Below, one piece after another: positions 24,821 to 40,374 of a stretch of 64,000 nt of DNA. This stretch comes from Miscanthus floridulus (taxonomy: Eukaryota > Streptophyta > Magnoliopsida > Poales > Poaceae). Location: the NCBI RefSeq assembly GCF_019320115.1, contig NC_089585.1:145097769-145161768 (forward strand), written 5' to 3'. Position 1 is the first letter of the stretch. Each line of letters opens with the position of its first letter. A program made the translations under genes and the position numbers. The notes beneath the pieces are model-generated. The model ran no database searches. It worked only from the letters and a program-made list of their open reading frames with translations, and had not been told where the DNA came from.

Positions 24821-24832
24821 TGGTATCAGAGC
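24821..24832 (+). other. Primer-binding site (initiator Met-tRNA type) of the + strand Tekay element
   Basis: TGGTATCAGAGC, three bases after the 5' LTR end. This is the usual primer site for Tekay/Del chromoviruses. Confidence 0.92.
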
Positions 24833-25011
24833 CGTGTTGACTGTAGGACGCAAGCCTAGTTAGAAAATTGTCGTTTTAGCAGCTTTGCTCCTCTGGTTTC
24901 TTGCTTACTGACTTATCCTTGTTATTTTATTAAAACATTTATGCTTTTCATACCTTAATCTATTATTTAAAATTTGTTGATTCTAATTTCTATCTCACTT
25001 TAAATCTATAG

Positions 25012-25860
25012 ATGTCTCATAATCCGAAGACTGCTCGACTCAGCACCGCCGGCTATCGTGCCATGTTCACCCCGCGTGCCCCACCGGCGGAGAGGGAGAT
25101 TGTGATCATCTCCGATGACGAGGAGATGGCTACACCGACGCCTACACCTACTCCTACACCAGTCGCCGTGCCCGTCTACCCTGTGGTAGCTACACCTGAG
25201 GAGTCGACGGCTACTTCCCCTACACCTGCACCCTCCCCAGCTGCCCCTGTGGAGGACGATGAGATTGGCTGGAAGTGCAAGTACTACTTCAAGCCAGCTC
25301 CAGAGACAGCCTACTACCACACTCTCCTCACCCACGTGCTGGATGACTACTTCCCCGACTTGCACGCCTCCATCAGCTACCACTGCGCTGAGTACAAGCA
25401 CCCACTGGAGGCTACCTTCTAGAAGGTAGAGCTGGTGGTCACCGCATGGAATGATATCATCAATGGACATGAGGTGGAGACTGTCCACAGTGCCCCTGCC
25501 AGGAGAGCCCATACTTTGGATGGCTTGGAGGATGCAGCACAGAATGCCTACATCCACTACCATGGTCATCGCTTCGAGGCCATGAGGGAGGATCGCTTCA
25601 GGTTCCTTCCTCGAAATGATCATGAGGGTGTTTGGTAGGTTTTGGCTCCACCAGAGAATGACCCAACTCTGGAGGCAACGGTGCAGCATGTCCACGCTAT
25701 GCAGGGAGTGGATAATGAGGTCAAAGGAGAACTGCGTGCATCTCAGAGGGCGCAGAGACGTCTTCAGAAACAAGTGGATGAACTTCGAGCATAGCTGGGA
25801 CAGCCTTCCATCTACAAGAAGAAGCACCGTTCCTTCACCATGATTGACACCGCTCCATAG
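25012..25860 (+). pseudogene. Extra ORF upstream of gag in the + strand Tekay element; H3-tail-like N-terminus
   Basis: One reading frame of 282 codons, ATG at 25012 to TAG at 25858-25860, with three internal TAG codons (25420-25422, 25636-25638 and near 25795), each explainable as CAG-to-TAG. Product in order: an N-terminus MSHNPKTARLSTAGYRA resembling a degraded histone H3 tail (TAR.ST.G core); an acidic patch (ISDDEE); a Pro/Thr-rich linker with a TPTP run; a globular-looking part rich in aromatic residues and His (GWKCKYYFK, YYHTLLTHVLDDYF); then a charged helical, probably coiled-coil C-terminus (QRAQRRLQKQVDELRA). No enzymatic motif and no known family name. It lies 180 bp after the primer site and 686 bp before gag, where Tekay-like elements are normally described as starting directly with gag. 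Confidence 0.7.
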
Positions 25861-26546
25861 GTGTTAGGTGCCTTGATCTAGATTATCATGTTGTTAGTTC
25901 GTGTCCTTATTTAGTCTTGATGGTCTTGTGAACTTGGTTGATTAGATGTTTGATTTGTGAACTTGGTTGATTTGGTATTTTGCTTGGTTGCTGGAAGTTT
26001 GTGGGCATGTCCACAACTTCCTTAGATTGGAACTTTAAATTTAGAATGAAATCTTAATGCAGAAGTATCATTTTATCTTATCTCTGCTGTGCTGATTTCT
26101 GGAGCAGCCTGTGTTCTTTATCTGGTAACTCGAAATCTGGGATGATAAAAATTCTGAAATTTTTGTGGAGATAACTAGACCTCTGTATCTTTCAAGTATC
26201 TTTGGAATCACGTCAATAGCCATTCAGGTTTGGGAGATCTAATTGGCACAAGTTGATGTTCCTGCGCTGTCTGGAACTCAGAACAGTTTCGGTTTAGCTC
26301 TATTTTTGACTATGTGCGAGTTCGAATCTGTAAAAGTGGTCTAAATGAAAGTTGTAGCTGATGTCCTAAGCTTTCTAACGAATCTTGGTGCACCTCTGTT
26401 GGATCTCGGAAACTTGAGTTATAACAGTTTTACTAAACTGCTGAAATTGAATCTTGCCCAGAAAATTTTCAGTATTGTTTCTTATCTTTTGTAAGCTCTC
26501 TATAATTGGAAAAATCTCTAAATTTTGCACATTTGTTGGAAAACAG
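25861..26546 (+). other. Spacer between the extra ORF and gag
   Basis: AT-rich, non-coding. Repeated TTG(T/A)GAACTTGGTTGATT segments lie near 25928 and 25957. Such a leader could hold the packaging signal or an intron letting both ORFs be expressed, but I see no decisive splice signals. Confidence 0.5.
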
Positions 26547-27617
26547 ATGGCCGCAAGAGGAGGAAGAGGCAGAGGCCGTGGTCGTGGGCGTGATGCTCTT
26601 ATGAATCCACCACCGCCACCTGTGACCATGGAGCAGATATTGGGAATGCAAGCGCAGCTGATGCAAGCTATGATGCAGCGCTTGGACAATAAACCTGCAA
26701 GAGGTCCATCGCCTGTCCAGGTTAGAGATAAGCATGGAGAGTTTATGAAAGGTCGTTCACCGGTGTTCACACATGCCACAGACCCTATGGAGGCCGATGA
26801 TTGGTTGCGTGCTGTGGAGAAACAACTGAACATAACACAATGCAACGACCTGGAGAAGGTGTTGTACGCTTCCGGGCAACTCCAAGGAGCTGCTCAGGAT
26901 TGGTGGGAATCATTTCAGTTTGGACGTCCCAACAATGCTCCTGATATCACTTGGCAGGAATTTAAGGACAGTTTCCGATCATACCATATTCCTGATGGAC
27001 TAGTGGAACTGAAGCAGGAAGAATTCAGATCTCTCAAGCAAGGATCAATGACTGTGGCGGAATATCGGGACAAGTTCGCACAACTATCTCGCTACGCTCC
27101 TAATGATGTGGCAGATGACAAGGATAAGCAACGCCGTTTCCTCAAGGGACTCTATGATGGACTACAGCTCCAGCTGATGTCTAATACTTATCCTAACTTC
27201 CAGTCTTTGGTGAATCGCGCAATCGTGATTGATGATAAGCGCAAGGAGATGGAAGCTAAGAAGAGAAGGCTCCAAGGGCAAGCTTCTGGAAGCAACACTC
27301 GCCCACGTGCTTATCCCCAGCAAGGATTCCAGCAGAGGAATCAAGGACCAACTCATCAGGGAAACCGTGGTCAGTATCCTCAGCGGAACCAGTTCCAGCA
27401 ACGCCCTCAGTATCAGCAACAGTTTGGAAATCAGCGTCCTCCGCAACAGACTAGCAATCCCGCAACACGCCAGGGAGTGCCTAACAATGCTCCTGTGAAG
27501 AGTGGTGCACCCAACAATCCCAATGCTTGTTACCGATGTGGAGAAGTAGGTCACTATGCTCATCAGTGTCCTAAGAAGCAGAACCAGCAAGCACCTCAGA
27601 ACCAGGCCAACAATTAG
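26547..27617 (+). pseudogene. Tekay gag (capsid/nucleocapsid), nearly intact
   Basis: A 356-residue open frame. I chose ATG at 26547 (MAARGGRGRGRGRGRD) because the earlier frame opening at 26454 is a TTG. Structure: an RG-rich N-terminus, a retrotransposon gag domain (about residues 70-200; ADDWLRAVEKQL, then QGAAQDWWESF and YRDKFAQLSRYAP), a Gln-rich linker, and a CCHC zinc knuckle CYRCGEVGHYAHQC near the end. It ends in TAG at 27615-27617, and pol follows in the same frame. Related elements have gag and pol fused, so this stop may be a mutation (CAG to TAG); programmed readthrough is less likely. Confidence 0.85.
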
Positions 27618-30600
27618 AAGTTCAACGCCCGACCACCTCTCACAGCGAAGGTGAACTATGTGTCATCTGATGCAGCTCAGGAGACGCCTGAGGTCATGTT
27701 GGGTACGTTCAGTGTCAACTCTATTTCTGCTACCGTACTTTTTGATTCTAGTGCTTCGCATTCTTTTATCTCCCAAGCTTTTGTTAGAATGCATAGCATA
27801 CCTTTGTGTGCCATGAAAAACCCAATACTAGTGAATTCCCCGGGAGGTAGTATGCCCGCTTCTTATTGGAGCCCCTCAACTAGCATTTCCTTAAGGGGGG
27901 TAGACTTCAAGGTGAAGCCTATTGTGTTGAGAACAGCGGGAATTGACCTTATCCTGGGAATGGATTGGATGAAACAACACCGGGCAGTGATTCAGTGTCA
28001 GGAGAAATCTATGGTTGTGACATCACTCAATGGGGATAGAATCTGTGTAGAAGTAGTAGTGCAAGCTCAGCCTATAGCCACAGTGAATCAGCTAGATGGT
28101 GAAATCAATGAACAAGATCGTGTCGTGGAGGAATTTCCGGATGTCTTCCCCGATGACTTGCTAGGTATGACACCTGACCGAGACATTGAATTCATTATTG
28201 AATTATTACCTGAAACTGCACCAATAGCTAAACGTCCATATAGAATGGGAGTTAATGAATTAGAAGAGCTTAAGAAACAACTAAAAGAGTTGCAAGAAAA
28301 AGGTTTCATACGCCCTAGTTCTTCCCCATGGGGGGCACCTGTGATCTTTGTGGATAAGAAGGATGGTAGTCAACGGATGTGTGTGGATTACCGCTCACTT
28401 AATGAGGTTACCATCAAGAATAAATACCCTTTGCCTAGGATAGATGATTTGTTTGATCAGTTGAGAGGAGCTCATGTGTTCTCCAAGATTAATCTTTGAT
28501 CTGGTTATCATCAGCTTAAGATTCAGAACTCGGATATACCCAAGACAGCATTCACTACACGGTATGGATTATATGAGTACACCGTTATGTCTTTTGGATT
28601 GACCAATGCACCTGCATACTTCATGTATTTGATGAATAAGGTGTTCATGGAGTTTTTGGATAAATTTGTGGCAGTATTCATAGATGACATACTAATATTC
28701 TCCAAGACTGAAGAAGAACATGCGGAACACATAAGGACGGTCTTGCAAAAACTTAGAGAGCATAAGTTGTACGCTAAGCGGAGCAAGTGTGAGTTTTGGT
28801 TAAAGGAAGTCTCTTTTCTAGGTCATGTTGTCTCCAATGGTGGTATAGCAGTGGATCCAGGCAAAGTGCAGGATGTACTGAATTGGAAACCACCAACTAC
28901 TGTAAGTGAGATTCGTAGCTTTTTGGGATTGGCTGGTTATTACCGAAGGTTCATTGAAGGCTTTTCCAAGCTAGCCAAGCCTATGACAGCTTTGTTGGAA
29001 AAGAATGCTAGGTATGTATGGTCGGATAAATGCCAGGCAAACTTTGAAGAGCTAAAGAAGAGATTGACTATAGCTCCAGTATTAATTTTGCCCGATTTAA
29101 ACAAGAACTTCTCTATATATTGTGATGCATCCTATTTGGGTCTCGGATGTGTGCTTATGCAAGAAGGAAGAGTGGTTGCATATGCATCCAGACAACTAAG
29201 GAAGCATGAGTTGAATTATCCTACTCATGACTTGGAATTGGCAGCTGTGGTTCATGCTTTGAAGATCTAGAGACATTATCTGATTGGACATAAGAGTGAT
29301 ATCTATACTGATCATAAGAGTTTGAAGTATATCTTCACCCAATCAAATCTGAATCTAAGACAACGTCGTTGGTTGGAATTGATCAAAGACTATGATTTGG
29401 AAGTGCATTATCACCCGGGAAAGGCAAACGTCGTAGCTGATGCACTTAGCAGAAAGAGCTATGCCAATGGAATTTAGACAACATCTATGTCAGCAGAGTT
29501 GTGTGCTGAAATGGAGTATCTCAACTTGAGCCTGGTCACTAATGCAATGGAATTGGTAATAGAGCCTACACTGGAGCAGGAGATACGCAAAGGTCAATTG
29601 GAGGATGAAAAACTTAAAGAGATAGCAGAGAATGTAGTGCTTGGAAAGGCACCCGGATTCAGAATGGATGAGAATGGAACTCTTTGGTTTGGGAAACGGA
29701 TATGTGTACCGGAAGTGAAAGCTATCCGTGATGCAATTCTACAAGAGGCTCATGAGTCTGCTTATTCTATACATCCTAGAAGTACCAAGATGTACTTGGA
29801 TCTCAAAGAAAAGTATTGGTGGTATGGTTTGAAGAGAGATGTGGCAGAATATGTGGCTTTGTGTGACACTTGTCAAAGAGTGAAAGCTGAGCATCAAAGA
29901 CCTGCAGGGTTACTACAACCAATGAAGATCCCTGAATGGAAATGGAAAGAAGTTGGCATGGATTTTATTGTAGGATTACCCCGCACTCAAAGAGGTTATG
30001 ATTCAATATGGGTAATAGTGGATCGACTCACCAAGGTCGCTCACTTTTTACCAGTCAAGACTACTTATAATGGTGCAAGATTAGCAGAGTTATACATGGA
30101 ACGAATAGTGTGCTTACATGGTGTTCCCAAGAAAATTGTGTCGGATAGAGGCACCCAATTTACATCGCAATTCTGGCATAAAGTACATAGATCTTTGGGA
30201 ATAAAGTTGAATTTTAGTTCTGCTTACCACCCGCAAACCGATGGACGGACTGAAAGGATCAACCAGATTTTGGAAGATATGTTGAGAGCCTGTGCACTTC
30301 AGTATGGTGATAGTTGGGATAAGAGTCTGCCTTACGCAGAGTTCTCATACAACAACAGTTATCAAAAGAGCCTCAAGATGGCACCTTTCGAGGCGTTGTA
30401 TGGACGTAAGTGTAGAACACCTTTGTTCTGGAATCAGACTGGAGAAACCCAAGTGTTTGGTCCCGATGTCCTTAGAGACGCAGAAGAACAAGTAAGAATG
30501 ATTAGAGACAATTTGAGAGTGGCTCAGTCTCGACAGAAGAGTTACGCTGATACCCGCAGAAGAGAGCTAACTTTCGAGATTGGTGATTATGTGTACCTGA

Positions 30601-30998
30601 AAGTGTCACCAATGAGAAGTGTGAGAAGATTCAATATGAAGGGAAAGTTAGCACCAAGGTATATAGGACCTTTTAAGATCCTAGAGAGACGGGGAGAAGT
30701 AGCTTATCAGTTGGAACTACTTGAGAGCTTGTCCGGTGTGCACGACGTGTTCCATGTTTCCTAGTTGAAAAAGTGTCTGAGGGTACCAGAAGAACAAATT
30801 CCTTTGGAAGAACTTGTTGTCAAGGAAGATCTTACTTATGAAGAGTATCCGATAAAGATCTTGGAAACTGCCGAAAGAGTTACGAGAAGCCGAACAGTAA
30901 AGATGTGCAAGGTACAGTGGAATCGTTATACAGAGGATGAGGCTACTTGGGAAAGAGAAGAGGATCTGAGAAAGACTTATCCCCAACTGTTTGAGTAA
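27618..30998 (+). pseudogene. Tekay pol: protease, reverse transcriptase, RNase H, integrase, chromodomain; broken by stops
   Basis: One frame throughout. Protease with [10 protein letters not shown], where the usual DSG is DSS (Ser codon 27750-27752; GGT to AGT); reverse transcriptase with [10 protein letters not shown] near 28678; RNase H with YCDAS and a DHKSL segment; integrase with CDTCQ, GMDFIVGLP, SDRGTQF and HPQTDGRTERIN; the KLAPRYIGPF region; and a C-terminal chromodomain (EEYPIKILE, then KVQWNRYTEDEATWE, 30830-30980). Stops: 28497-28499 (TGA where related proteins have Arg), 29268-29270 (TAG for Trp), 29475-29477 (TAG), 30762-30764 (TAG for Gln in DVFHVSQLKK). No frameshifts. It would make cDNA and integrate it; as it stands it cannot be produced whole. 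Confidence 0.92.
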
Positions 30999-34055: not shown

Positions 34056-36200
34056 CTACCGCAACTCAGGAACTTTTGGTACCACCAGGTGATCCTTGAA
34101 CCATAACACATCTTCATCATCTATGCTAAAGCATTCCGCTTTTCCATTCTTGACTTTTTCCTTGATATGGGCTATACCCTTGTTTTCCTTCTGAGCAGCA
34201 ATAACTTGATCTCGAATAGTAGCTTCAACAATTATGTTGGTCAAACTTCCTTGTTGAATTACTTCTATATTCAACTTTTCCATTTCTTGACATAAATTCA
34301 AACCCATTGTTCTCACTCTCAGACAATTGCAATAACTTTTGCGACTAAGGGCATCTGCAACCACATTTGTTTTACTAGGGTGATAATGTACTTCCAAATC
34401 ATAATCCTTAATCAGTTCTAACCATCTTCTTTGTCGCATGTTCAACTCTGACTGAGTAAAGATATACTTTAAGCTCTTGTGGTCTGTATACATATGGCAC
34501 GTATTACCAAGCAGGTAATACTGCCAAATCTTCAGAGCATGAACCACAGCTGCTAACTCCAGATCATGAGTCGGATAGTGTTCTTCATGCTGCTTAAGTT
34601 GCCTAGACGCATAGGCAATGACTCGGCCTTCTTGCATCAACAACATCCAATACCAATACCTGAAGCATCACAATAAACATCAAACGGCTTCTCGATATCA
34701 GGTTGAGCTAACACTGGTGCAGTAGTCAATAGCCTTTTCAAAGTCTGGAAAGCCTCCTCACAATCTAATGACTAGACAAACTTAACTTGGTTCTTCAACA
34801 ATTCAGTTATGGACTTTGATATTTTTGAGAAATCTAGAATAAACCGACGGTAATACCCCGCCAATCCCAGAAAACTCCAAACTTGATGAACTGTGGATGG
34901 CGGTTTCCAATCAAGCACATCCTTCACTTTGCTAGGATCAACTGCAACTCCTTCGGCTGACAAGACATGTCCAAGAAATTGCACTTCCTTAAGCCAAAAA
35001 TCACACTTGCTGAACTTGGCATATAATTGATGTTCTCTCAAGCAGGTCAGAACAATTCTGAGATGTTCCGTATGTTCTTTCTTATTCTTGGAATATACTA
35101 AAATGTCATCAATAAACACCACTACAAACTTGTCTAACTCAGGCATGAATACTGAGTTCATGAGATACATGAAATGAGCTGGAGCATTTGTCAAACCAAA
35201 AGACATTACCAAGTATTCATATAATCCATATCTTGTGGTAAATGTCGTTTTGGGAATATCTTCAGGCTTTATCTTGATTTGGTAATATCCTGATCTCAAA
35301 TCTATCTTGGAGAAAACTTTGGCTCCGGCCAATTGATCAAAAAGCAAATCTATCCAAGGTAATGGATACTTATTCTTGATGGTCACTTCATTCAATGGAC
35401 GATAGTCAACACATAACCTCAGGGTCTCATCTTTCTTTTTCACAAAAATTGCCAGACATCCCCAAGGTGAGGAACTAGGTTGGATAAACCCTTTCTCAAT
35501 CAATTCTTGTAACTGAGTCTTCAACTCGGCCAATTCCTTAGGTGGCATCCTATAAGCTCTCTGAGAAATTGGAGCTGTTCTAGATTGTAACTCTATATTA
35601 AACGGTACATCCTTATCAGGTGGTAGACCGGGTAAATCTTCAGGAAACACATCCGGAAATTCACACACTACCGAAATATCTCTAATCTCTTTGACAGTAG
35701 TTGCACAAATCTTGCCCACTGATCTTCTTAGGGTTGGAAGTTGGATGAGAAGTTGAGAATTACTATCAGGCAAACTCACCCTTAAGGTCCTATTCAAAGC
35801 ATCTATAACAGCCTTATGCTGATATATCCAATTCATTCCCAAGATTACATCTGTATCCTGATCCTTAAGGATAATCATGGTAGTGGGAAAAATATGCCCA
35901 CCCAGGTTTACGGGTACCTGGTATACCATTTCCTTAGTACACAGACGTCCCCCAGGCGACTGTATAAAGAAACTTTCCTTTGTTGCCCCAATTGAAATTT
36001 CATGCTTCACGACAAATGTTCTATTGATGAATGAATGCGATGCGCCAGAATCAAAAAGTATAACTGCAGGGTGATTGGCAACAGGAAACATACCCATCAT
36101 CACTGTCTCCCCTTCCGAAATTTCTCTAGCTTGAATATAGAACACCCGTCCTATCTTCCTCTCATCTTTGCCCATCTGAGCATTCTGATTGTGGTTCTTG
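34056..36200 (-). pseudogene. Tekay pol, protease to RNase H portion (minus-strand element)
   Basis: From 36175 downward: protease with the intact active site [11 protein letters not shown]; the segment [15 protein letters not shown]; reverse transcriptase with [30 protein letters not shown] and FIDDILVYS; RNase H with YCDAS, then [14 protein letters not shown] and [15 protein letters not shown] (34646-34056). Breaks: TAG at 34772-34774 where related proteins have Trp (KFVWSL), a frameshift near 34640, and a TAG close to the insertion point. The integrase half continues on the far side of the inserted element at 22389. The protease is better preserved than in the + strand copy. Confidence 0.9.
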
Positions 36201-37273
36201 TTTGGTGCCTAACCCTGTTGTTGATTGGCAGGGGTCTTCTGATAATTTTGATTAGCCTGCCTAGGATATGGACATTCCCTAGAGAAATGACTAGTCCTTC
36301 CACAATTGTAACACAGATAGTTGTGACCCTGGGACGTTGGAGCATTGCCACCAGAAGCATTGGTTGACTGTGAATTCAGATAGGTTATAGCAGGACGGAC
36401 ATTTGACTGTTGCCCGGCTTGGAACTACGGCGGACGATAAGGAGGACGATTATGATGTACTGGATGATAAATCACCCTCTTCCTCTTCTGATTTCCCCCA
36501 AAAGATCCAGATGGCATACTCTTTTTCTTTTTGAGCTCCTTATGCTGCCGATACTTTGACTCTGAAGCAATTGCAATATTTATGGCCTCATGATAAGTGA
36601 CATTGGTGCAAGTTGTCATCATTGTTTGTAGCTTGGTATTCAAACCTCTCATAAACCACCTCTTCTTCTTTGCATCAGTATTAACATGTTCTGATGCATA
36701 TTGGGATAGGTGATTAAATCTTCCCACATACTGCATCACTGTTTGATCTCCTTGCTTCAAAGCAAGGAATTCATCTAGCTTCATAGCCATCACTCCTTTA
36801 GGGATATAATGGGCTCTGAAGGCAGCACAGAACTTAGCCCAAGTTATTGGAATGCCAGCTGGTTGCATAGCCACTAAGTTTGCCCACCAAGCACTTGCAG
36901 CTCCTCTAAGTTGCTGGGCAGCAAACGCAGGTTTCTGATACTCCGTGCATGGAATAAGGTCAAATTTCTGCTCCATGGTTCGAAGCTAGTCATCAGCCTC
37001 CAATGGTTCATCTGCCTTGGTGAACACCGGTGGTCTTGTGTCTGTAAAATCAACATATGTAGCCTCCTGTCTGTTATGGTGGCGACCACGATTTCCTTGC
37101 ATCTGATTCTGATTACTTAGAGCGATCTCATGAAGCAAACGGGAATTTTCAGCCGTCACATTGACAAGTGCGGTTATAGCATCAGCAAGATTTGTTGGAA
37201 CTAGTGGCGGATCTGGAATACCATCCTCATCTTGTGAAGTTCCAGGAACATACGAACCCCGCGTACGACGCAT
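36201..37273 (-). pseudogene. Tekay gag (minus-strand element), broken
   Basis: Starts at ATG 37271-37273 (MRRTRGSYVPG). The open frame from 37291 uses TTG and I did not choose it. The gag domain spans 36986-36425 (RTMEQKFDLIPC, QQLRGAASAWWANL, YVGRFNHLSQYA), followed by a zinc knuckle CYNCGRTSHFSREC (about 36320-36280). Stops are TAG at 36983-36985 (for Trp in ADDWLR), TAG near 36426 and TAG near 36211; all fit G-to-A or C-to-T changes. Confidence 0.85.
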
Positions 37274-37449: not shown

Positions 37450-38020
37450 TCAAACTTCAGGCTCGGTATCCATTCCGGAATTATTACCGCCTTCATTATC
37501 ACTTTCATCGATCATTACTAATTCTTCAGGATCTTCTTCTTCTTCCTCTTCCGATTCGTTATCATCGGCAAGGATGACACCGGGGTCCATGGCATCAGCT
37601 TGAGGCTCATGATTCGGGTTTAGTAGATTGCTAAGCCTATGAACTTCCTCATGTAGATAGGTATTATGTTCTTCTAAATCTTCTACATAGAATTCTAGCT
37701 CATGAGTTCTAGCTCTAGCTACATTTTCCCTATGCCAAGCCTCATTTCGTCCCTCCACCATACGAACTAACATGCTTTTCATAGTTCCTGTGTGCGGTGG
37801 TGAGACGCCTCAATTGATCCTGTAATTCTCCTACCTGTATAGCATCCAAAGCCCTATCTCTAGTAGCTTGTGCTAACTCTGCAGAAATCCTCTGTATCTC
37901 TGCCTGGGGATCAGGTCTAGAACTACTACTGCTAGCACCATCATTTCTAGGGGCAAGTTGGTGACAAGGAACTCCTTTGGGTCCAGTGGACTTATGGGGC
38001 GTCATCTTGGCACGAGCCAT
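37450..38020 (-). pseudogene. Extra ORF upstream of gag in the minus-strand Tekay element; clear H3-tail-like N-terminus
   Basis: ATG at 38018-38020. The first 18 residues, MARAKMTPHKSTGPKGVP, align without gaps to the N-terminus of histone H3 (Met included) at 10 of the first 15 positions, and QLA follows as in H3 after a one-residue shift. H3 residues R2, K4, T6, K9, S10, T11, G12 and K14 are kept. Next come a Ser-rich linker, a helical charged region (ISAELAQATRDRALDAIQV, then LEFYVEDLEEHNTYLHEEV) likely to form a coiled coil, and a very acidic C-terminus (ESEEEEEEDPEEL). A frameshift near 37780 joins frames 38020-37780 and 37782-37450. Gag starts 176 bp downstream. No family name is known to me. 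Confidence 0.75.
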
Positions 38021-38374
38021 ACTGTAGGAAACCAATTTAATCCAAGTAACACTATTTGATCAAAGTTTAAAGAGCAGCTATGATGGATTACATTACTCAA
38101 ACCAGTCTCACTACTCAACTCTAGACTAAGAGGTGAAGGAAGTAACGAGTGAATTAATAATGATGCATGAATCGTTCTTACGAACAAAAACATCAAAGTT
38201 TATAATGCACATAAACAACATTTATTTTTATATAGGGCATAGTAAGATTACTACTCCACCACACAAGACCCTTTTAATCAAATAAGGAATGGTGAGAAAG
38301 AAATAAGATAAGTCAGAAGCAATTTGGACCAAATTATCAAGTTAAATTTAGTCATCCCAATCATTTTGAAGTGT

Positions 38375-38963: not shown

Positions 38964-40374
38964 TAACTGTAGGATTTGGGAGGTCGGAAAGATTTTTCTT
39001 GATTTTGGTCCCCTAGGATCCGATCGGTCCGCCGTCGTACTGCGATCGCACGTTCGGTCTCCTTACGAGTCAAACTTCCCTCAAGCCCCCGCGCGTAACA
39101 GGGGTCCGGTCGAGGGTCGGCTCGTCTTTGTGATCGTCATCCCTTAAGTATTTTTTTCGATAAAAACAAAGGGGCTGAGCCGTACCATGTTTTTCCTCGA
39201 TGGACGAAACATGGTGCTCGGTGGGCTATTAACGGGCTAGTCCAAGTAGGGCCTCGGCTTCCTGTTCGTGGGGGTTCGACATGGGTCAACTGATGATCGA
39301 CTCCAAATTCTCAGTGGCCAATCCATATAGCTCTCGAGTCTGTTCGACCGGTCCCAAGGGCTTGTTGTCTTTCTTCGAGGAAAAACCATGGACTAGGAAC
39401 CAACGAAGACTCGAACGTGGGTCGGGATGCCTACGGCGCTCGTGCGCCTAGGTACTAGCCGCTAGTGGGCCCATCCCTTTCCACCCCTCACTCTAAGGGC
39501 ACCTCAGAGCGGGTGTGAACCTGTCGGAGGGCAAGCCATCAAACTCCTAGGCCTAAATGGGCCATAGGAGCGTTTTCAGCTCCGTATCCCTCCTTACCTA
39601 TGACGGTTCTCGTGCCTGTCTACATCGACGCTCAGCTGGATGACATCGAGAAGGAGGTGGGCCCTTTGGCATAGGACTTACCTATGAAGATAGAGGATAA
39701 AATCATCCCCCAAAAATTAGTTAGGTAGATAAGCCAGGCGGTGAACTTGTAATAAGTGGACAAGCTCTTAAATTTCGTTATGGCCAAAAAAAAATTTTAG
39801 CTCTTCTCCCCTTTTTGTATAAAAAGGTTAATGCGTTTCGACCCTTTTTGTCGTTAAGACTATAAAGCTCGGGGTGCAGGGTGAAAAAACTCTGATCACA
39901 TTGGTGAGCAAAAACACTATAGCCGCTAGGGCATAGGTTTCTTGCAGTTCGACCAGTTTTACTCAGCATTCATTTCCGTAACCCTTGCTTCTAGATCTTA
40001 ATATGAGAAAGGGTCAGGCACAAAGAATGTTTGCTGGGTAGATATACTCTTTAATGCGTTCTGACACTTTTTGTAGTTAAGGCTAAAAAGCTCGGGGTGA
40101 GGGCAAAAAACTCTGATCACGCTGGTGAGCAAAAATGTCGTAGTCGCTAGGCCATAGATTTCTTGCGGTCTGACCAGTTTTACTTAGTGTTTGTTTCTGC
40201 AACCCTTGCTTCTAGATCTTAATGTGAGAAGGGTCAGGCATAGAGAATATCTACCAGATAGATATGCTCTTATTAGCCGCTGAGTGAGGCCTGGCCCCTT
40301 GCCGTTGTTGGAGTCGGGTGTCACTAAAGATCGAGGAGTCGATAGCGAAACTGATAAGAGAAAGCGTGCGTAAA
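38964..40374 (-). other. 3' untranslated region of the Tat Gypsy element
   Basis: This continues the Tat element beyond the TRIM insertion. No gene is visible. It includes a tandem repeat (39828-40275) and several short GC-rich segments. Long 3' untranslated regions are typical of Tat elements. Confidence 0.65.
39828..40275 (-). repeat. Two-copy tandem repeat, period about 223 bp, in the Tat 3' untranslated region
   Basis: Copies start with TTAATGCGTT at about 39828 and 40051. They share AAAGCTCGGGGTG, AACTCTGATCAC, GGTGAGCAAAAA and CCCTTGCTTCTAGATCTTAA. AGCTCGGGGTG resembles the polypurine tract motif of this lineage. Confidence 0.85.

What the first reader, a model, noticed from the sequence alone, without database searches (positions are those of the whole stretch)
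37967..38020. Histone H3 tail look-alike at the start of a retrotransposon ORF
The extra ORF of the minus-strand Tekay element begins MARAKMTPHKSTGPKGVP. Histone H3 begins MARTKQTARKSTGGKAPR. Ten of the first 15 residues are identical without gaps, and QLA follows in both. Residues that carry or border H3 marks (R2, K4, T6, K9, S10, T11, G12, K14) are kept, while two Arg differences (R8 to His, R17 to Cys) are what CpG decay would produce from an even closer ancestor. I do not know of a described H3-tail mimic in plant LTR retrotransposons. Mimicry could recruit or titrate histone-modifying or reader proteins.
Basis: partly seen in the sequence, partly recalled or inferred. Interest (0 to 1): 0.92.

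Follow-up and report, generated by a model that had tools for sequence, protein, structure and literature searches.

The report
Histone H3 tail on retrotransposon protein
A helper protein of some very abundant grass jumping genes begins with a copy, in related families almost letter for letter, of the tail of histone H3, which suggests that these elements imitate chromatin to deal with the machinery that silences them.

Summary
The minus-strand ORF at 38020 begins MARAKMTPHKSTGPKGVPCHQLAPR: 10 of its first 15 residues equal H3. It is the 5' additional ORF (aORF, ORF0) of a Ty3/gypsy element in a 2.68-Gb genome, apparently Miscanthus floridulus. Blind PDB searches with sibling tails return H3 first. 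Most siblings have Arg where this copy has His and Cys, by CpG transitions. Of 40 copies found through the other half of the protein, 40 carry the tail. A second family with about 31% identity in the coil keeps 70% in the tail.

A pattern for MARTKxTARK matches the genome 2506 times (reversed control 0). I read 35 of the 100 places listed: 35 are not H3 genes, and 34 match H3 at 14-19 of residues 1-21, one with an 18-residue unbroken run. The bodies of three, tail removed, are homologous to the window's aORF.

So this is a captured or imitated H3 tail on a predicted long helix, not chance. Function is inferred: most likely a decoy for H3-tail writers or readers. Against that: Pro at A7 in the window's family, K4 lost in another, Leu at K9 in a weaker third. 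My searches found no description in print.

The parts
37946..38020 (-). H3-like tail, codons 1-25 of the aORF
   Evidence: translation; blind PDB search returns H3 only
37742..38020 (-). aORF (5' additional ORF, ORF0), first part: tail, Ser-rich linker, start of the helix; 92 aa
   Evidence: homologs
37450..37782 (-). aORF second part in a shifted frame: helix and acidic C-terminus
   Evidence: matches the intact copies' second half
36986..37273 (-). gag, first part (ends at a stop)
   Evidence: by position
36425..36985 (-). gag, PF03732
36209..36424 (-). gag end with a CCHC zinc knuckle (seen by eye)
34772..36208 (-). protease PF08284 and reverse transcriptase PF00078
34056..34667 (-). RNase H PF17917; no integrase recognised by eye beyond it in the window copy
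25012..25422 (+). aORF start of a second element, MSHNPKTARLSTAG: in register with H3 T6 A7 R8 S10 T11 G13 but Leu at K9
   Evidence: blind PDB search of a relative's tail gives 0 hits

Best explanation
The aORF protein of these elements carries at its very N-terminus a histone H3 tail (about residues 1-21), taken from or moulded on H3 long ago. The tail is disordered and sits on a predicted helix of 96-100 residues (probably a coiled coil, so several tails per complex), followed in the window's family by an acidic end. Most likely it works as a decoy: after removal of the first Met it offers ART-K4 and/or TAR-K9-ST to host proteins that write or read H3 methylation, and so competes with or captures silencing factors near the element's own RNA, particles or DNA. 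Shown: the sequence match, its spread through at least five aORF groups (the window's, MPPRTRK, and three exact-tail groups), and its conservation across deep divergence. Predicted: the architecture. Inferred: expression, nuclear location, binding, decoy effect.
For: Blind PDB searches return H3 first for tails of two families and for a profile (controls 100, 101). 2506 exact matches to MARTKxTARK in the genome against 0 for the reversed pattern; 35 of the 100 listed were read, 35 are not H3 genes, 34 match H3 at 14-19 of residues 1-21, also outside the pattern (S10 34/35, G13 34/35, P16 34/35, L20 33/35, A21 34/35). Tail-less bodies of three of them align to the window's family at E 9.8e-17, 3.0e-10 and 1.6e-10. 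Tail identity between two distant families is 70% against 40% linker, 31% coil, 12% C-end (16 x 9 sequences). K9 is kept in 96/96, 97/97 and 40/40 tails (in one search it was demanded by the pattern). Disordered tail on a long helix. The aORF as a whole is under constraint (pN/pS 0.28 for codons 26-78).
Against: The window's family has Pro at A7 (91/96; 40/40), outside the EHMT2 motif [GCSAKLN]RK printed in PMC10611923 (passages). The MPPRTRK family lacks A1 and has Arg at K4 (97/97) and Ile at K14 (96/97). Leu at K9 in the second element's family. Ala for T3 in 35/40 copies close to the window's. Positions that differ from H3 (Pro14, Gly16, Val17, His20, Pro24, Arg25 in element numbering) are as strongly kept in two families as the H3 ones. 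Inside the genome pN/pS is higher in the tail than in the rest (0.58, or 0.39 without CpG Arg codons, v 0.28), and synonymous change is also low there (0.099 v 0.234), so some constraint may lie in the RNA or in how copies were chosen. No expression or binding data.
Confidence: 0.5

Rival explanations
1. The tail binds the element's own integrase chromodomain: an internal tether or switch that holds the integrase until it meets real H3, or brings the aORF protein into the integration complex.
For: A relative (same element as L005 by distance) has a chromodomain-like integrase end (PF00385, E 3.1e-5, 24.2 bits, just under the cut-off of 25.1). The partner of plant group II chromodomains is said not to be found (PMC3350952, passages).
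Against: Group II chromodomains lack part of the aromatic cage (PMC3350952 and PMC11728184, passages). Pro at A7 should disturb strand pairing (recalled structural knowledge). No binding data.
Confidence: 0.15
2. An H3 tail was captured long ago but now serves another purpose (for example RNA or capsid binding), and the H3 likeness is history.
For: Non-H3 positions are as conserved as H3 ones. Families lose different H3 features. Synonymous sites in the tail are also constrained. Codon agreement with host H3 genes is above expectation in two exact-tail groups (0.429 v 0.260; 0.427 v 0.299), as after a capture.
Against: Three exact-tail groups keep residues 1-13 almost unchanged in thousands of matches; at 4 of 5 residues where two families differ, one equals H3.
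Confidence: 0.23
3. The tail is an H3-type nuclear import signal that brings the aORF protein into the nucleus by the histone importins.
For: 5' aORF proteins are predicted nuclear in other species (PMC11728184, passages). The tail is basic.
Against: In the yeast structure Kap123 holds K14 and K23 and ignores the sequence between (PMC5677370, passages). Here K23 is Arg in 92/96, 96/97 and 31/35, and K14 is Ile in 96/97 and Arg in 32/35, Lys only in the window's family, 95/96. The kept part is the part that Kap123 does not read.
Confidence: 0.08
4. Chance: a basic, Ser/Thr-rich disordered N-terminus that happens to look like H3.
For: The window copy alone is only marginal (E 0.2).
Against: Unbroken runs of up to 18 residues at the same Met-anchored place in homologous ORFs; blind searches return H3 first; reversed control 0.
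Confidence: 0.02

Closest known systems
ORF0 / 5' aORF of Retrosat2, RIRE3, RIRE8 and of sunflower Tekay
   Same: An extra ORF between primer site and gag of a Ty3/gypsy element, disordered parts, function unknown (PMC3485330, abstract and passages; PMC11728184, passages)
   Different: No H3 likeness is mentioned: the word histone occurs 0 times in the main text of either paper.
Host histone H3
   Same: Residues 1-21 (up to 19 of 21) at the protein's start
   Different: No histone fold: the rest is a helix-forming protein and Pfam finds no histone
Cellular H3K9 mimics (G9a/GLP automethylation sites, ATF7IP)
   Same: Short H3K9-like motif (PMC9768651, passages)
   Different: Those are short internal motifs; here up to 21 residues at the free N-terminus, encoded by a transposon
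Viral histone mimics such as influenza NS1 (recalled, from no call)
   Same: A genetic parasite that carries an H3-like tail
   Different: NS1 has a short C-terminal H3K4-like motif; here a longer N-terminal copy in an LTR retrotransposon

Membership tests
Tekay-type chromovirus (Ty3/gypsy) | Ty3/gypsy gag, protease, RT, RNase H | tested here: met
   Pfam hits in the window copy
Tekay-type chromovirus (Ty3/gypsy) | Chromodomain at the end of integrase | tested here: inconclusive
   Window copy lacks the region; one sibling of three looked at was scanned: PF00385 E 3.1e-5, just under the cut-off
Tekay-type chromovirus (Ty3/gypsy) | 5' aORF between primer site and gag | tested here: met
   Primer-site motif about 400 nt before the aORF in 3 of 4 siblings examined (not in the window copy), gag after it
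Tekay-type chromovirus (Ty3/gypsy) | RT falls in the Tekay clade | not tested
Histone mimic | Sequence likeness to a histone tail beyond chance | tested here: met
Histone mimic | Exposed, unfolded tail | tested here: met
   Predicted disorder before the helix; a prediction only
Histone mimic | Modified or bound by histone writers or readers | not testable with these tools
   needs binding and enzyme assays
Histone H3 protein | Histone fold | tested here: not met
   No histone hit in Pfam for aORFs of three families; one long helix in models of two
H3-type importin signal | Lys at K14 (small neighbours) and at K23 | tested here: not met
   K23 is Arg in most copies of the three family groups counted; K14 is Ile or Arg in two of them. 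The rule is from yeast Kap123 (PMC5677370, passages)

The most novel reading that the evidence does not exclude
Grass chromoviruses captured the H3 tail and have kept it on a multivalent helical scaffold as an anti-silencing device: a tail that can be methylated at K4 and K9 but, with K14, K18 and K23 mostly turned to Arg or His in the exact-tail families, cannot be acetylated there. It would soak up or redirect the H3K9me/CHG-methylation machinery, or dock the element's own chromodomain. Different families then specialised on the K4 end or the K9 end, or blocked K9 with Leu.
Probability: 0.35. Interest if true: 0.95.

Novelty: new variant of a known kind. Interest (0 to 1): 0.86.

Why it matters
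It gives a concrete, testable role to ORF0/5' aORF proteins, which are described as having no known function. It would be a case of H3-tail imitation by an LTR retrotransposon at genome scale: 2506 exact ten-residue-pattern matches in one genome, and 9245 first-look candidates for the window aORF's second half. It links two halves of one puzzle: plant chromoviruses carry a chromodomain whose partner is unknown, and a protein with an H3 tail. It also warns that H3 peptide searches, gene annotation and perhaps H3-tail antibodies in grasses can hit these ORFs.

Tried and rejected
Chance resemblance: rejected by blind searches, controls and exact-tail relatives. Recent copying of a host H3 gene into the window's family: not supported, codon agreement with 23 host H3 starts is 0.286 against 0.266 expected; in two of three exact-tail groups it is above expectation, partly because the search pattern fixed some Arg codons. 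Importin signal: disfavoured by K14/K23. Idea that most copies lack gag (a string test failed in 26 of 30): rejected, 28 of the 30 loci are collinear with the window copy for at least 1.5 kb past the ATG. Third family KTARLSTAG as a full H3 match: not supported, blind PDB search 0 hits. Fold search of the model: 0 matches, uninformative for a single helix. Viral contig scans: no relatives. DNA of the MPPRTRK family was not obtained; P0122 has no close match among the 150 scored in this genome (best 44%). The first integrase stretch fetched (L121) held no frame of 100 aa.

Rows dropped: one search counts 96 of 107 homologs (left out: 5 without the anchor or start, 5 of the second family, 1 with another start residue). 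One search counts 97 chosen by a motif that includes tail residues 15-23, 1 short row left out. One search keeps 89 of 90 copies. I picked the 60 and the 40 copies from lists of 150 and 35 places from 100 listed.

Full report
Observation. The ORF begins at 38020 on the minus strand and reads MARAKMTPHKSTGPKGVPCHQLAPR. Ten of its first 15 residues equal H3. The frame breaks near 37750 and the rest of the protein lies in another frame at 37450-37782. Downstream come gag, protease, reverse transcriptase and RNase H, then sequence in which I recognised no integrase (by eye). Upstream, the window copy is collinear with its siblings only to about 350 nt before the ATG. In 3 of 4 siblings examined the primer site lies about 400 nt before it; the window copy has none. 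So the window holds a truncated, decayed copy.

Is it chance? Of 828 ATG-started open 28-mers in the window the ORF is the clear top match to H3 (52; next distinct 34; mean 13.7, SD 4.3). For ten tails, 0 of 20000 shuffles each reached the observed score. A blind search of 177635 distinct PDB sequences with a sibling tail returned 129 hits at E<=10; the 60 shown are H3 chains or peptides (best 5.6e-4). A profile of ten tails gave 144, best E 4.5e-7, the 60 shown H3 or H3/CENP-A-type. The tail of a distant family gave 127; of the 60 shown 59 are H3 or H3-type (one titled Cse4) and one is a synthetic fusion (best 0.029). The window copy alone returned two hits, both H3, at E 0.2 and 0.91. The reversed tail gave none, the element's gag N-terminus one weak ribosomal protein.

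The family. 107 homologs were found. In 96 usable tails the commonest residues restore T3 (82/96), R8 (58; His 25, Cys 11) and R17 (56; His 31, Cys 6), while K4 (94/96), K9 (96/96), S10 (89/96) and K14 (95/96) are kept; T11 is Thr in 46 and Val in 39. The own genome has 5032 first-look candidates for the first part of the aORF and 9245 for the second part, 150 scored each time. In 89 copies read, changes mapped on a tree built without the tail give 90 replacement changes in the tail, 58 at CpG sites, 48 of them in the Arg codons 3, 9 and 19; CpG replacements are 45 on terminal and 13 on internal branches (apparent reversals are included). To avoid choosing copies by their tails I took 40 by the other half of the protein: 40 of 40 carry the tail, with K9 40/40, Pro for A7 40/40 and Ala for T3 35/40.

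Deep conservation. A second family (MPPRTRKTARKSTGPIGVPRHQLAPR) has about 31% identity to the first in the coil and 12% at the C-end but 70% in the tail (16 against 9 sequences). It lacks A1, has Arg at K4 and Ile at K14, but has an exact TARKSTG. Within residues 1-25 the two families differ at five aligned residues, and at four of them one of the two equals H3, as if both descend from a tail closer to H3.

The exact-tail relatives. A DNA pattern for MARTKxTARK matches 2506 times in the genome (1273 forward, 1233 reverse); the reversed control gives 0. A core-histone search of the same genome scored 150 matches of all core-histone types; in the 30 loci it returned I read 23 canonical H3 starts. 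Of the 100 places listed by the pattern search I read 35: 35 of 35 are other ORFs. 34 of them match H3 at 14 to 19 of residues 1-21 (17 of them at 18), one only at 10. L172 has MARTKQTARKSTGGKAPR without a break. The first ten residues except one were demanded by the pattern, but positions outside it agree as well (Q5 25/35, S10 34/35, T11 24/35, G12 30/35, G13 34/35, A15 31/35, P16 34/35, R17 18/35, L20 33/35, A21 34/35). K14 is Arg in 32/35, K18 Arg or His in 34/35, K23 Arg in 31/35. Of four such elements looked at, four have a primer-site-like motif upstream and three have gag/RT frames downstream (by eye). With the tails cut off, the bodies of L169, L165 and L175 still align to the window's family (best E 9.8e-17, 3.0e-10, 1.6e-10), sharing, by eye, RNEAW and LHEE stretches of the coil. 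So the window's ORF belongs to a superfamily in which the H3 tail is nearly exact.

A further case. The second element in the window (+ strand) starts its aORF at 25012 with MSHNPKTARLSTAG, in register with H3 T6, A7, R8, S10, T11, G13 but with Leu at K9. Many of its 75 relatives listed keep this. A relative's tail does not find H3 in a blind search, so I treat it as suggestive only.

Architecture. Models of one protein of each family give a disordered N-terminus, one helix (38-133 and 37-136) with pLDDT mostly above 90, and a disordered C-terminus. A PDB fold search found nothing.

Selection. Over 129 copies codons 26-78 have pN/pS 0.28, and the tail 0.58, or 0.39 without the three CpG Arg codons. 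Both kinds of change are rarer in the tail (pN 0.057 v 0.066, pS 0.099 v 0.234). So the dN/dS test inside one genome does not single out the tail. The case for selection rests on the deep comparison and on the exact-tail families. Copies were picked by similarity, which biases these ratios.

Origin. Codon agreement with host H3 genes is near background in the window's family (0.286 v 0.266) and above it in two exact-tail groups (0.429 v 0.260; 0.427 v 0.299; a third 0.356 v 0.321). This leans to an old capture of H3 coding sequence; the pattern's fixed Arg codons inflate it somewhat.

Mechanism. Best supported is imitation of H3 toward H3-tail writers or readers. K9 is the one lysine kept in the window's, the MPPRTRK and the exact-tail groups (in the last by choice of pattern), but not in the weak third family. 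Against a simple K9 story: Pro at A7 in the window's family, and Leu in the third. An importin signal fits poorly, because Kap123 needs K14 and K23 (PMC5677370, passages). Binding to the element's own chromodomain is possible: a relative has a chromodomain-like integrase end just under the Pfam cut-off, and the partner of plant group II chromodomains is said not to be found (PMC3350952, passages).

In print. ORF0/5' aORF proteins are known (PMC3485330, abstract and passages; PMC11728184, passages), and the main texts of both lack the word histone. Nine full-text searches listed no title or abstract start on an H3-tail mimic in a plant retrotransposon. Only the top of each listing was seen, and subscription journals are missing from the library.

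Noticed in passing
window 24821-30764 (+): Second Ty3/gypsy element: primer-site motif TGGTATCAGAGCC at 24821, aORF at 25012 starting MSHNPKTARLSTAG (H3-like TARxST with Leu at K9), gag from 26451, protease/RT from 27618, integrase to 30764.
   Followed up: partly
window 38021-38031 (-), 25000-25011 (+), L165-L179 upstream of the ATG: The aORF start codons lie at or within two bases of an acceptor-like AG (CTACAG, CTATAG, GTGCAG), so the aORF may be read from a spliced leader.
   Followed up: no
L165-L207 tails: In exact-tail aORFs the acetylation sites K14, K18 and K23 are mostly Arg or His while K4 and K9 stay Lys (these two were demanded by the search pattern).
   Followed up: partly
L178: Another ORF starts MARTKLTARK and then differs from H3 (10 of 21), with a long acidic stretch; preceded by TTATAG.
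   Followed up: no
codons 2-25 of the aORF in 129 copies: Synonymous change in the tail is less than half of that in codons 26-78 (0.099 v 0.234), which hints at a constraint on the RNA or DNA there.
   Followed up: no
P0110, P0112, P0118, P0059: Pfam PF25539 (Bestrophin_2) matches the linker and coil below its cut-off, and one source calls a homolog (P0055) bestrophin; probably a coil likeness or contaminated model.
   Followed up: no
window 39828-40233: Two pairs of direct repeats (129 and 60 nt, 82-83% identical, spacing about 222) upstream of the element.
   Followed up: no
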